Assembly (NCBI RefSeq): GCF_900104725.1 | Contig: NZ_LT629758.1 | Location: 2,108,001-2,172,000 of the forward strand | DNA: 64,000 nt | From: Actinoplanes derwentensis | GTDB lineage: Bacteria > Actinomycetota > Actinomycetes > Mycobacteriales > Micromonosporaceae | Direction: 5' to 3' | Shown: positions 41,663 through 62,200 of the stretch, in pieces | How the letters are laid out: every line of letters begins with the position of its first letter | How positions within the stretch are numbered: position 1 is the stretch's first letter | Notes under the pieces: model-generated | What the model was told of the DNA's origin: nothing | Seen by the model: only the letters and a program-made list of their open reading frames with translations | Databases searched by the model: none | Made by a program: the position numbers and the translations under genes

Positions 41663-42400
41663 ATGGTGGTTCCTGTTTCGCGGATCGGTGCTGGTTTGTG
41701 GCATGCCTTGGAGGACGACCTGGTGGTCGGCCGGGGTGAGGTCTTGTCGCGGGCTGATGGGCGGATGTTCGTGAGTATCGACGCTTGGCACGGTGCGGCT
41801 TTCGGTCGGCTGGCTGAGGTGATGCTGGCGGTGTTGCCGCGGCCGTTGCATACGGTGGTGGCCGAGGATGACGCTGATCTGGCGGGGTGGTGGCGGCAGG
41901 CGGGGTTTCGGGCGCGGCGGCGGGAGTGGGAGTTCGTGGTTCCCACTGATCCTCAGGTGACCGGGTTGGGTTCGGTGGTGGTGCCGCCGGGGGTGTCCGT
42001 CAAGGGTTTCGGTACTGCGGTGGAGGGGCCGTTGCGGGAGTTGGACGGGGTCGTCCGGGGTGAGGTGTCGTGGCCGGACATGCCGGCTGAGGTGCTGGTG
42101 CGGCCGGTGTGGGATGTGTCGAAGTTCGCGGTGGCGGCGGCCGGTGACGGGTATGTGGGTTTGTTGCGGGTGGCGATGGTGACGCGGAGGCCGAGGATCG
42201 GGCTGGTGGCGGTGCGGTCGAGTCATCGGCGTCGTGGGGTGGCGCGGGCGTTGTTGGCGCATACGTTGGGTGCGTTGCATGTAGTGGGTAAGGAGTCGGT
42301 GGCGGCGGAGGTCGTCGAGTCGAATGTGGCGGCGACGGCGCTGTTGGAGGGCGCCGGTGGGCGGCGGTCCGGTAGCAATCTGGAATTGGTGGTGGGCTGA
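41663..42400 (+). CDS. GNAT-family acetyltransferase at the cluster edge
   Basis: 245 residues with two acetyltransferase-like halves. The second carries the acetyl-CoA loop VAVRSSHRRRGVARALLAHT, then a segment ending ESNVAATALLEGAGG. The N-terminal half (LVVGRGEVLSRADGRMFVSI) looks degenerate. It is one base from the IF-1 gene downstream, so both are on one transcript. It could acetylate the cluster's product or a ribosome-linked protein, or be unrelated. Coding-strand G-richness matches the next two plus-strand genes. Confidence 0.82.
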   Translation: MVVPVSRIGAGLWHALEDDLVVGRGEVLSRADGRMFVSIDAWHGAAFGRLAEVMLAVLPRPLHTVVAEDDADLAGWWRQAGFRARRREWEFVVPTDPQVTGLGSVVVPPGVSVKGFGTAVEGPLRELDGVVRGEVSWPDMPAEVLVRPVWDVSKFAVAAAGDGYVGLLRVAMVTRRPRIGLVAVRSSHRRRGVARALLAHTLGALHVVGKESVAAEVVESNVAATALLEGAGGRRSGSNLELVVG

Positions 42401-42401
42401 C

Positions 42402-42626
42402 GTGGTGAAGTCGTCGCACGGTATCGAGCTTGAGGGTGTGGTGATGGAGTGTCTGCGGAATGCGACGTTCCGGGTGGAGTTCCCGAACGGGCATCAGACT
42501 CTTGCGCACATCAGTGGGAAGATCCGGAAGAACTACATCAAGATCCTGCCGTTTGATCGGGTGTTGGTGGAGTTGAGTCCGTATGACCTGACGCGTGGGC
42601 GGATCGTGTTCCGGTACCGCAACTAG
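42402..42626 (+). CDS. infA: translation initiation factor IF-1 paralogue
   Basis: 74 residues from GTG 42402 (or GTG 42405). The S1/OB-fold sequence GIELEGVVMECLRNATFRVE, then FPNGHQTLAHISGKIRKNYI and KILPFDRVLVELSPYDLTRG is unmistakable IF-1. It binds the 30S A site during initiation. The housekeeping copy normally sits in a ribosomal-protein operon; here it stands between a GNAT gene and a P450 at the edge of a biosynthetic cluster, so it is a second copy. A strong hairpin follows it. Confidence 0.93.
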   Translation: MVKSSHGIELEGVVMECLRNATFRVEFPNGHQTLAHISGKIRKNYIKILPFDRVLVELSPYDLTRGRIVFRYRN

Positions 42627-42634
42627 TGGGGTGG

Positions 42635-59821: not shown

Positions 59822-59825
59822 CACC

Positions 59826-61019
59826 GTGCGCGTCCTGATGGTCACCTGGGGCTGGCGCACCCACTTCCTGCCACTGGCCCCACTCGGCTGGGCACTACGC
59901 GCCGCCGGCCACGACGTCCGGGTCGCCTGCCAGCCCGGCCAAGTCGCCGCCGTCACCGAAGCCGGACTGCCCGCCGTACCGGTCGGGCCGCCACTGGGCT
60001 TCGCCGACGTGTTCCGCGGACAGGTCGGCAAAGTGGCCAGCCGTGAAGCGTTCGACACCGGCACCGACCTGGACGGGCTCGCACCCCAGGTCACCGAAGA
60101 CGGCGGCACCCTACGATTCGCCGACGTGATGGTCGACGACCTGATCACCTACGGCCGCCACTACCGGCCCGACCTGGTGCTCTACGAACCGTTCAACATT
60201 GCCGGAGCGATCGCCGCGGCAGCCCTCGGCGTACCCGACGTCCGACTGCTGTGGGGGCCGGACTCCACCACCGAACTACACCTCGACGAGGACAAACTGA
60301 TCGGGCCCCGCGCCCGTCGCGCCGGGGCCAGCGGCGTGCGGATCACCGGCACCCTCACCCTCGACCCGTGCCCCGCCGCCCTGCAAGTACCGGTGACCGG
60401 ACCCACCCACCCGATCCGGTTCGTGCCGTACAACGGCGCCGCGATCCTGCCGGACTGGCTGCGCCACCCGCCGGACCGGCCACGGATCTGCCTGACCTGG
60501 GGCACCATGATGGCCGAACTCGGCCTCACCGACCGGATCAGCGTCACCACCATCGCCGACGCCCTCTCCGAGCTGGACGCCGAGATCGTGCTCGCCCTGG
60601 CCCCCCGCCACCGGGACACCCTCGGGCCGCTCCCGGCCAACGTCCGCGTCCCCACCGAACACCTGGCCCTGCACCTGCTGCTACCCGGCTGCGCCGCCGT
60701 CGTCCACCAAGGTGGCGCCGGAACCTTGATGACCGCGATGGCCTGCGGCGTGCCGCAAATGGTCGTACCCGCGGTCACCGACCAGCACTTCAACGGCGAA
60801 CGACTGACCCGGGCCGGAGCCGGCACCGTCCTCGCCGACGGCGACGAACACCCGGCCGCGATCCGCGCCGCACTGCAGCGGCTGCTCACCGACCCCGGAC
60901 CCGCCGCCGCTCTTGCTGTCGAGAACGCCGCCCGCCCCACACCCGCAGCCGTCGTGCCGGTACTCGAAGACCTCGCCGCCACGGGCCGCCGGGATTTCAT
61001 TCCAGGAGGAACACCGTGA
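59826..61019 (+). CDS. GT1 glycosyltransferase (EryCIII/DesVII-like)
   Basis: 397 residues, GTG start. MRVLMVTWGWRTHFLPLAPL, then GWALRAAGHDVRVACQPGQV, and the donor site CAAVVHQGGAGTLMTAMACG, then VPQMVVPAVTDQHFNGERLT. This is the antibiotic deoxysugar transferase group. Some members need a P450-like helper lacking heme; the P450 next door keeps its Cys, so it is not such a helper. Overlaps the P450 gene by four bases (GTGA). Confidence 0.94.
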   Translation: MRVLMVTWGWRTHFLPLAPLGWALRAAGHDVRVACQPGQVAAVTEAGLPAVPVGPPLGFADVFRGQVGKVASREAFDTGTDLDGLAPQVTEDGGTLRFADVMVDDLITYGRHYRPDLVLYEPFNIAGAIAAAALGVPDVRLLWGPDSTTELHLDEDKLIGPRARRAGASGVRITGTLTLDPCPAALQVPVTGPTHPIRFVPYNGAAILPDWLRHPPDRPRICLTWGTMMAELGLTDRISVTTIADALSELDAEIVLALAPRHRDTLGPLPANVRVPTEHLALHLLLPGCAAVVHQGGAGTLMTAMACGVPQMVVPAVTDQHFNGERLTRAGAGTVLADGDEHPAAIRAALQRLLTDPGPAAALAVENAARPTPAAVVPVLEDLAATGRRDFIPGGTP

Positions 61020-62200
61020 CCGAACCGCTGACATATCCACTCGCGCCCGGCCCGTCGATCCACCACCCGTCACCGCAGATGACCGACCTGCGCAACCGCT
61101 GCCCCGTCGCACCGGTCACGATGCCCGGCGACACCCCCGCCTACCTCGTCACCCGATTCGCCGACGTCCGGCAGGTCCTGGTCGACCCCCGGTTCAGCCG
61201 CCGAGCCGCCGGAGAAGCCGACGCACCCGCACAAGAACTCGGCGAACTCGAGACCGACTCACTGATCGGCATGGACCCACCCGAACACAGCCGGCTACGA
61301 CGACTGGTCTCGCGCGCCTTCACCCCCCGCCGCGTCGAACAACTACGCCCCCGCGTAGCCGCGCTCGTCGACGAACTGATCGACGCCATGATCGACGGGC
61401 CGCAGCCCGCCGACCTGGCCACCCTGTTCTCCACACCCCTGCCCGTGCAGGTGATCAGCGAACTGCTCGGCATCCCGGAACACGACCGGCACCGCGCCAA
61501 ACAATGGTCCGACGCGATGATGAGCGACTGGCGCGTCGACCCGTCCGGCGCCCGCGCCGCACTCGACGGCTTCGCCACCCTGATCGCCGCCCGCCGCGCC
61601 GACCCCGCCGACGACCTGATCACCGCACTGATCCACGCCCAGGAACACGAAGACAAACTCACCGAACACGAACTGGTCTCGATGACCGTCGGCGTGCTGA
61701 TCGGCGGCCACGAGACCACCACCAACCTGATCAACATGGCGCTGCTGACCCTGCGCCGGCACCCCGACCAGTTCGCGCTGCTCAAACAGGACCTGAGCCG
61801 GATCCCGGCCGCCGTCGAGGAACTACTGCGCTTCATCCAGCTCGGCGACACCGGCGTCATGCTGCCGCGCATCACCACGGAGGAGGTCGAGCTCAGCGGT
61901 GTCACACTGCCCGCCGGTACGCCGGTACTCGCCGCGTTCGTGACCGCCAACCGGGACCCGGCGGTGTTCCCCGACCCGGACCGCTTCGACATCGCCCGCA
62001 CCCCGAACAACCACCTCGGCTTCGGCGCCGGCCCCCACCACTGCCTGGGCGCGCCGCTGGCCCGGATGGAACTGCAGGAGGCGCTGCACGGCCTGCTCAC
62101 CCGCATGCCCGACATCGAAGTGGCGATCCCGGACGAGGACCTGAACTTCAAGCAGGGTCTCGCGGTCCGCTGCCTGACCGCCCTCCCGGTCACCTGGTAA
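61016..62200 (+). CDS. cytochrome P450 (canonical)
   Basis: 394 residues, GTG start with AGGAGG at 61004-61009. Heme Cys343 in FGAGPHHCLGAPLARMELQE, I-helix GVLIGGHETTTNLINMALL with the normal Glu-Thr pair, and ExxR in AVEELLRF. It resembles CYP105/CYP107-type tailoring oxidases and likely hydroxylates the terpenoid late in the pathway. It is the last gene of the eight-gene operon; partner ferredoxin and reductase are not linked. Confidence 0.95.
   Translation: MTEPLTYPLAPGPSIHHPSPQMTDLRNRCPVAPVTMPGDTPAYLVTRFADVRQVLVDPRFSRRAAGEADAPAQELGELETDSLIGMDPPEHSRLRRLVSRAFTPRRVEQLRPRVAALVDELIDAMIDGPQPADLATLFSTPLPVQVISELLGIPEHDRHRAKQWSDAMMSDWRVDPSGARAALDGFATLIAARRADPADDLITALIHAQEHEDKLTEHELVSMTVGVLIGGHETTTNLINMALLTLRRHPDQFALLKQDLSRIPAAVEELLRFIQLGDTGVMLPRITTEEVELSGVTLPAGTPVLAAFVTANRDPAVFPDPDRFDIARTPNNHLGFGAGPHHCLGAPLARMELQEALHGLLTRMPDIEVAIPDEDLNFKQGLAVRCLTALPVTW

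What the first reader, a model, noticed from the sequence alone, without database searches (positions are those of the whole stretch)
41663..62200. Unrecognised hybrid terpenoid / aminoacyl / glycoside biosynthetic cluster
One 20-kb region combines a long-chain-type polyprenyl synthase, UbiA, a squalene-cyclase-like protein, an FAD epoxidase/hydroxylase, an aminotransferase, a GT2, three GT1 transferases, two P450s, a TauD oxygenase, a methyltransferase and a C-A-T-TE NRPS. I know of no described pathway with this set. It has no transporter, pathway regulator, MbtH, PPTase or deoxysugar genes, so the sugars and export come from elsewhere. The product is inferred to be a prenylated, oxidised glycoside with an amino-acid unit.
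Basis: partly seen in the sequence, partly recalled or inferred. Interest (0 to 1): 0.88.

Follow-up and report, generated by a model that had tools for sequence, protein, structure and literature searches.

The report
Brasilicardin-like diterpenoid glycoside gene cluster
This is a 14-gene cluster, probably from an Actinoplanes bacterium, that most likely makes a sugar-decorated, amino-acid-bearing diterpenoid related to the immunosuppressant brasilicardin; the core chemistry is of a known kind, but this peptide-synthetase branch of the family seems unexplored.

Summary
In detail: all 14 listed genes form one block, 42,753-62,200 (the GNAT gene at 41,663 is not part of it). It is one cluster: all 14 recur in the same order and orientation in two other Micromonosporaceae genomes, and 13 of 14 in a third whose contig ends there. 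"No described pathway" is half right. The core (polyprenyl synthase, UbiA, non-canonical squalene-hopene-type cyclase, FAD epoxidase, TauD) is of the phenalinolactone / tiancilactone / brasilicardin kind; TauD is 63% identical to PlaO1. Within that kind, loci with an aminotransferase (29 of 38 rows) and loci with an FAH-hydrolase gene (6 of 38) do not overlap in the stretches compared, separate cleanly in the cyclase and TauD trees, and differ in the cyclase motif (Leu-Glu against Leu-Asp). The FAH side holds PlaO1 and the tiancilactone producer; the aminotransferase side holds the window and a locus with the published brasilicardin layout. I predict a brasilicardin-type tricyclic diterpenoid amino acid, O-methylated, glycosylated by up to four transferases, with one further residue added by a C-A-T-TE peptide synthetase. 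No product has been shown, and the brasilicardin genes themselves were not compared. New variant of a known kind.

The parts
42753..43940 (+). cytochrome P450 (P450a); heme Cys present, I-helix motif reads GGREINS instead of the usual GGxxT (usual motif recalled)
   Evidence: Pfam PF00067 95 bits; sequence printed; present in both NRPS-bearing relatives whose contig reaches it, G313 and G338
43965..45134 (-). GT1-type glycosyltransferase (GT1a)
   Evidence: PF06722/PF03033; at 40% identity or more only in the NRPS-bearing relatives G174, G313, G338
45139..46008 (-). TauD-type Fe(II)/2-oxoglutarate oxygenase, PlaO1-like; open frame starts at 46134, likely start 46008 behind GGAGGG
   Evidence: PF02668 219 bits; PlaO1 (7qtd) 410 bits with HTD and HY motifs kept; 63% identity to PlaO1 over 284 residues; start
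46149..47204 (+). O-methyltransferase (Methyltransf_2 with dimerisation domain)
   Evidence: PF00891, PF08100; 48-74% relatives in 28 of 38 locus rows
47215..48387 (+). GT1-type glycosyltransferase (GT1b); start codon uncertain (47215, 47266 or 47290)
   Evidence: PF06722, PF00201; start options
48373..52302 (-). one-module NRPS, C-A-T-TE; HHxxxDG, TSGSTG, LGGHS and GxSxG motifs intact; A-domain code residues D-V-W-F-L-I-L-V-A (positions recalled)
   Evidence: PF00668, PF00501, PF00550, PF00975; motifs; the same residues in 7 close orthologues, with two conservative changes in one of them, G313
52571..53593 (+). trans-polyprenyl diphosphate synthase (DDIID present)
   Evidence: PF00348 198 bits; motif
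53587..54558 (+). UbiA-family membrane prenyltransferase
   Evidence: PF01040 109 bits; both Asp-rich motifs
54581..56254 (+). squalene-hopene-cyclase-like class II cyclase lacking the DXDD motif (VTLE, residues 325-328)
   Evidence: PF13243/PF13249; motif from profile alignment to 3sqc and family alignments; model pLDDT 87 matches squalene-hopene cyclase, TM 0.79-0.82
56251..57510 (+). FAD monooxygenase, squalene-epoxidase/UbiH-like, proposed epoxidase
   Evidence: PF01494, PF08491; GxGxxG
57507..58508 (+). HisC/aromatic-type PLP aminotransferase, proposed to make the alpha-amino acid head group
   Evidence: PF00155 174 bits; best solved relative a putative phenylalanine aminotransferase, 229 bits; tree with paralogues
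58505..59821 (+). GT2-type glycosyltransferase
   Evidence: PF00535
59826..61019 (+). EryCIII-like GT1 glycosyltransferase (GT1c)
   Evidence: PF21036 153 bits, PF06722 116 bits
61016..62200 (+). cytochrome P450 (P450b), GGHET motif present
   Evidence: PF00067 120 bits; motif

Best explanation
One pathway for a brasilicardin-type glycosylated diterpenoid amino acid. Polyprenyl synthase makes GGPP (chain length assumed); UbiA joins it by a C-C bond to a small keto-acid-like acceptor (identity unknown); the FAD enzyme epoxidises the far end of the chain; the non-canonical class II cyclase opens the epoxide and closes a tricyclic perhydrophenanthrene carrying a hydroxyl; the aminotransferase turns the keto acid end into an alpha-amino acid; TauD hydroxylates next to it and the O-methyltransferase methylates that oxygen; the P450s oxidise the skeleton; GT1/GT2 enzymes glycosylate it; the C-A-T-TE module activates one amino acid and attaches it to the scaffold or its sugar. 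Shown here: gene content, intact active-site motifs, co-conservation, clade membership. Inferred: every reaction, the order of steps and the product.
For: Core set plus PlaO1-like TauD found together across Micromonosporaceae, Pseudonocardiaceae, Streptomycetaceae and a genus that I take for Nocardia. The order prenylation-epoxidation-cyclisation is stated for phenalinolactone in a title (Alsup 2024, seen only in the reference list of PMC13307353). AT-bearing and FAH-bearing loci are separate clades in the cyclase tree rooted on G062 and G799 (99/97 and 100/99) and opposite sides of a 100/100 branch in the TauD tree; PlaO1 and the tiancilactone producer CB03234 fall on the FAH side (CB03234 as producer: passages of PMC10301674). 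At the lost DXDD site the cyclase ends in Leu-Glu in 23 of 23 AT-side rows, G688 included, and in Leu-Asp in 6 of 6 FAH-side rows. On the AT side, G688 carries TauD divergent from AT-PPS-UbiA-SHC-FAD-P450, then a PapA-type acyltransferase, a protein with a sub-threshold GT2 match, and the OMT. That is the printed brasilicardin plan: bra0, a dioxygenase for the C16 methoxy group, divergent from bra1-bra11; bra1-bra6 make the core; bra0 and bra11 do the methoxylation; bra10 presumably attaches rhamnose; [quoted passage not shown] PMC12185567 passages). antiSMASH in print calls Micromonospora clusters brasilicardin-like at 23% and 38% (passages of PMC8146288 and PMC11965639).
Against: The brasilicardin cluster itself was not compared: G688 is unnamed and 10.0 Mb, against 9.27 Mb for N. 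terpenica, so it is a look-alike, not the reference. Only 3 of 150 genomes of that genus gave the cyclase at E <= 1e-40 and none has N. terpenica's size; either the species is not held or its cyclase is more distant. That bra1-6 include an aminotransferase, UbiA, cyclase and epoxidase is my recollection; no passage that I read lists them. The cluster aminotransferases are one group only at 75/62 support, and the G688 copy is no closer to the window's (44%) than another G688 paralogue is (48%). G688 sits on a long branch in the trees. The C domain of the NRPS has no evident upstream donor in the cluster. G310 and G311 lack OMT, NRPS, P450a and GT1a.
Confidence: 0.6

Rival explanations
1. Phenalinolactone/tiancilactone-type product: the PlaO1-like oxygenase closes a gamma-butyrolactone and the aminotransferase only supplies the keto acid that UbiA prenylates.
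For: TauD is 63% identical to PlaO1 over 284 residues and this is by far the best solved relative; UbiA, SHC and FAD are shared at 44-49% with the CB03234 locus L017.
Against: The window's TauD and cyclase lie outside the groups that hold PlaO1 and CB03234; the FAH-hydrolase gene of all 6 FAH-side loci gave no match in the stretches of the 29 AT-bearing rows; the cyclase motif differs between the sides.
Confidence: 0.2
2. Aryl meroterpenoid: the aminotransferase makes an aryl-pyruvate from Phe, Tyr or Trp, which becomes the acceptor that UbiA prenylates, in the manner of the zigralone (zig) cluster.
For: Best solved relative of the AT is a putative phenylalanine aminotransferase; the zig cluster pairs an aminotransferase with a polyprenyl synthase and a UbiA prenyltransferase (passages of PMC13307353).
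Against: No TPP enzyme or Pyr4-like cyclase seen here; a PlaO1-like TauD and a class II SHC-like cyclase are present instead.
Confidence: 0.1
3. Two neighbouring pathways: a terpenoid glycoside operon (52.6-62.2 kb) and an unrelated NRPS/TauD/OMT peptide pathway (42.7-52.4 kb).
For: The right-hand genes look like a separate operon; G310 and G311 keep them without NRPS, OMT and P450a.
Against: TauD is within 22 kb of the cyclase in 26 of 27 genomes; 14 of 14 genes in the same order in G313 and G338.
Confidence: 0.05

Closest known systems
Brasilicardin A cluster (bra0-bra12, Nocardia terpenica; MIBiG BGC0000632 according to PMC9802219)
   Same: [quoted passage not shown] G688, with the same layout, shares TauD 65%, FAD 54%, SHC 50%, PPS 49%, OMT 48%, UbiA 47%, AT 43% and the VTLE cyclase motif.
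   Different: C-A-T-TE NRPS, three GT1 and one GT2, two P450s; no 3-hydroxybenzoate genes (bra7-bra9) or SARP regulator recognised in the block; bra sequences themselves not compared.
Phenalinolactone cluster (pla, Streptomyces sp. Tu6071)
   Same: PlaO1-like TauD 63%. L020, whose TauD is 99% identical to PlaO1, shares UbiA 47%, SHC 45%, FAD 47%.
   Different: No FAH-hydrolase gene; has AT, NRPS and OMT; outside the PlaO1 group.
Locus of the tiancilactone producer Streptomyces sp. CB03234 (L017; that this locus is the tiancilactone cluster is my inference)
   Same: PPS 48%, UbiA 49%, SHC 44%, FAD 45%, TauD 64%.
   Different: FAH hydrolase instead of AT; a free AMP-binding enzyme instead of a C-A-T-TE module; no OMT or GT match at the thresholds.
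Zigralone cluster (zig, Micromonospora zingiberis)
   Same: Aminotransferase, polyprenyl synthase, UbiA, methyltransferases and P450s in one cluster (PMC13307353 passages).
   Different: Pyr4-like cyclase and TPP enzyme there; SHC-like cyclase, FAD epoxidase and TauD here.

Membership tests
Prenylation-epoxidation-cyclisation diterpenoid pathways (phenalinolactone / tiancilactone / brasilicardin kind) | Adjacent polyprenyl synthase, UbiA, SHC-like cyclase and FAD epoxidase genes | tested here: met
   the same set at L017 (CB03234) and other loci
Prenylation-epoxidation-cyclisation diterpenoid pathways (phenalinolactone / tiancilactone / brasilicardin kind) | SHC-like cyclase without the full DXDD acid motif | tested here: met
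   VTLE here; NFLD or NILD in L017-L021 and G035
Phenalinolactone/tiancilactone (lactone) branch | TauD and cyclase inside the PlaO1/CB03234 group | tested here: not met
   Separated with 99-100% support
Phenalinolactone/tiancilactone (lactone) branch | FAH-hydrolase gene next to the core (feature found here, not taken from print) | tested here: not met
   No match in the window's cluster region or in the 29 AT-bearing rows; present in 6 of 6 FAH-side loci, which define that side
Brasilicardin-type | Dioxygenase (Bra0) and methyltransferase (Bra11) for the methoxy group | tested here: inconclusive
   Homologous TauD and OMT present; shared with G688 at 65% and 48%; bra sequences not available
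Brasilicardin-type | Aminotransferase in the core operon | tested here: inconclusive
   Present; one origin with the G688-type copies supported only 75/62; its presence in bra itself is recalled
Brasilicardin-type | 3-hydroxybenzoate genes (bra7-bra9) | tested here: not met
   No chorismatase-like or free AMP-ligase gene among the block's genes; I count this as decoration, not core
Brasilicardin-type | Product: tricyclic diterpene with amino acid side chain | not testable with these tools
   No metabolite data
Canonical squalene-hopene cyclase | DXDD motif | tested here: not met
Nonribosomal peptide synthetase module | Intact C, A, T and TE active-site motifs | tested here: met

The most novel reading that the evidence does not exclude
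The aminotransferase-bearing clade (29 locus rows, at most 27 genomes after two known doubles, in Micromonosporaceae, Pseudonocardiaceae and a probable Nocardia group) is a large, mostly unexplored class of brasilicardin-type diterpenoid amino acids, with the head group set by a genetic switch: aminotransferase for amino acid, FAH hydrolase for lactone. The window stands for a sub-branch in which an NRPS module adds a second amino acid or peptide-like unit to a multiply glycosylated scaffold, a terpenoid-NRPS-glycoside hybrid for which my searches found no description.
Probability: 0.4. Interest if true: 0.65.

Novelty: new variant of a known kind. Interest (0 to 1): 0.5.

Why it matters
Brasilicardin A is a potent immunosuppressant (PMC7837296 introduction) that acts on amino acid transport system L (title of Usui 2006, seen in reference lists); the sparse structure-activity data imply that its amino acid and sugar parts are critical (PMC10204089 passages). 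If this clade makes amino-acid-bearing diterpenoid glycosides, it is a ready set of natural analogues from many genomes outside the known producer, and the aminotransferase/FAH-hydrolase split gives a simple genetic reading of which head group a cluster makes. It also offers a cyclase family without DXDD in which to find the acid that opens the epoxide.

Tried and rejected
Rejected: the GNAT gene (41663) and the upstream TetR/MFS pair as cluster members (no match in the other stretches; left flanks of the closest relatives are short). Rejected: the downstream genes; beyond the window end lie siderophore-type IucA/IucC synthetases. Rejected: canonical squalene-hopene or ent-copalyl synthase chemistry (DXDD absent). 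D377 as the universal catalytic acid: it is Ser in G677, G554 and G649. Left open: the NRPS substrate; the code D-V-W-F-L-I-L-V-A (positions recalled from the PheA numbering) matches no code that I recall. Left open: prenyl chain length. The 17 non-actinobacterial loci (L024-L040) hold only distant cyclases (24-32%; one short segment at 42%) and no such cluster; they were dropped from the later tables.

Rows: each row is a stretch of about 12-44 kb around the cyclase, so absence means absence from that stretch; 29 rows have AT, 6 FAH, 3 neither (L003, cut by its contig end; G062; G799). Its 38 rows include at least two genomes twice (L002 and G174; L005 and G657). The trees omit 8 near-duplicate or double rows (L002, L005, L008, L010, L011, L012, L016, L022); L003 was labelled AT there on a partial aminotransferase.

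Papers: PMC7837296 abstract, introduction and passages; PMC12185567, PMC10301674, PMC13307353, PMC9802219, PMC8146288, PMC5183585, PMC11965639 and PMC10204089 passages; PMC7441235 and PMC5159576 first part of two. Everything else that is named was seen in search listings or reference lists, or is marked as recalled. That this cluster is undescribed rests on searches of an open-access library only.
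Full report
The window lies at 2.108-2.172 Mb of a 10.65-Mb single-contig genome. The nearest cyclase relative outside it (88%) is from Actinoplanes sp. G11-F43, so Actinoplanes is likely. Compared with relatives, the cluster runs from the P450 at 42753 to the P450 at 62200; the GNAT gene at 41663 gave no match elsewhere.

It is one cluster. Three other genomes carry the block in the same order and orientation: P450a> <GT1a <TauD OMT> GT1b> <NRPS PPS> UbiA> SHC> FAD> AT> GT2> GT1c> P450b>. 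In G313 and G338 further genes lie between the left part and the NRPS. Identities fall together: cyclase 72/70/67% and NRPS 57/55/49% in G174/G313/G338. The closest NRPS relatives in the protein search (84, 58, 58, 49%) come before a drop to about 40%. Two of these four, named Micromonospora sp. NPDC050417 and Polymorphospora rubra, also appear in the cyclase list; the other two (one unnamed, one Micromonospora sp. NPDC049523) do not appear by name among its 120 listed rows. The A-domain code residues are the same in the 7 close orthologues aligned, apart from two conservative changes in G313. Of 354 genomes of the family, 27 hold the cyclase at E <= 1e-60, and 26 of those 27 hold the PlaO1-like TauD, 2.3-22 kb away. 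A direct family-wide search with the NRPS did not complete.

The kind of pathway is known. TauD matches PlaO1 of phenalinolactone biosynthesis at 410 bits and 63% identity. The cyclase model (pLDDT 87) has the squalene-hopene cyclase fold, but the acid motif DXDD reads VTLE in the window and VTLE or ATLE in the 17 relatives of alignment A1. Streptomyces sp. CB03234, which a review names as tiancilactone producer, has PPS, UbiA, SHC, FAD and TauD at 44-64%. The title of a 2024 paper gives the order prenylation, epoxidation, cyclisation for phenalinolactone (reference list).

The branch matters. Across 38 locus rows, 29 have the aminotransferase and none of these shows the FAH-hydrolase gene in the stretch held; 6 have the FAH gene and no aminotransferase; 3 have neither (one of them cut by a contig end). 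The two sets are separate clades for the cyclase (31 rows, rooted on two distant ones) and opposite sides of a branch for TauD (26 rows), with support of 99/97 or better. The lost DXDD site ends in Leu-Glu in 23 of 23 aminotransferase-side rows and in Leu-Asp in 6 of 6 FAH-side rows. PlaO1 itself falls with the FAH set, 99% identical to the S. hyderabadensis copy. So the FAH side contains the known lactone makers. On the aminotransferase side, a genome that I take for Nocardia (G688) has a dioxygenase divergent from AT-PPS-UbiA-SHC-FAD-P450, followed by a PapA-type acyltransferase, a protein with a GT2 match just under the cut-off, and the methyltransferase. This fits the printed plan of the brasilicardin cluster, whose product carries an amino acid side chain. 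Published antiSMASH runs already label clusters of two Micromonospora strains as brasilicardin-like at 23% and 38%, and a Pseudonocardia cluster as weakly so.

Limits. The aminotransferases of the window's group and of the G688 group are one clade only at 75/62, and another paralogue in G688 is as close to the window's copy. G688 is a long branch. A TauD of the PlaO1 kind alone would also fit a lactone. No acyl donor for the C domain is evident, so whether the NRPS acylates the terpenoid, a sugar or the head group is open. Two aminotransferase-bearing loci (L023, G406) lack the FAD epoxidase in the stretch held and share another FAD protein instead, so the epoxidation step may vary.

Verdict: a real, conserved, probably functional cluster; a new NRPS-bearing variant of a known kind, most likely making a brasilicardin-type glycosylated diterpenoid amino acid. 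Confidence is about 0.9 that it is a prenylation-epoxidation-cyclisation diterpenoid pathway and 0.6 for the amino-acid head group.

Noticed in passing
L023:16863-18215 and G406 region (L111): Two aminotransferase-bearing loci lack the FAD epoxidase in the stretch held and share a different FAD protein (64% identical to each other, weak Trp_halogenase Pfam match); possibly another way to start cyclisation.
   Followed up: partly
L104 (G688) 7267-18729: A probable Nocardia genome, not shown to be N. terpenica, with a locus laid out like the printed brasilicardin cluster.
   Followed up: partly
L020 (Streptomyces hyderabadensis): TauD 99% identical to PlaO1: a likely phenalinolactone-type cluster in this species.
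   Followed up: no
L106:1667-4762: The second probable Nocardia locus (G677) carries an A-T-C synthetase; acyl-transfer domains of the C/PapA kind recur in different forms on the aminotransferase side.
   Followed up: no
window:54581-56254, residues 325-328 of the cyclase: The lost DXDD site ends in Leu-Glu on the aminotransferase side (23 of 23 rows) and Leu-Asp on the FAH side (6 of 6); D377 is Ser in G677, G554 and G649.
   Followed up: partly
window:42753-43940: P450a I-helix reads GGREINS without the usual threonine, although the heme cysteine is present.
   Followed up: no
window:5984-6073: Glycine riboswitch aptamer (67 bits) inside an open frame called from 5133 to 8960; the true gene start is probably downstream of it.
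   Followed up: no
L081:3088-7320 (just past the window end): Neighbouring siderophore-type locus: two IucA/IucC synthetases and a PLP decarboxylase.
   Followed up: no
window:37950-38843: Aminoglycoside-phosphotransferase-family (APH) protein between the upstream TetR gene and the cluster.
   Followed up: no
L024-L040: Distant SHC-like proteins (mostly 24-32%) in planctomycetes, verrucomicrobia and others, several with a polyprenyl synthase nearby.
   Followed up: no
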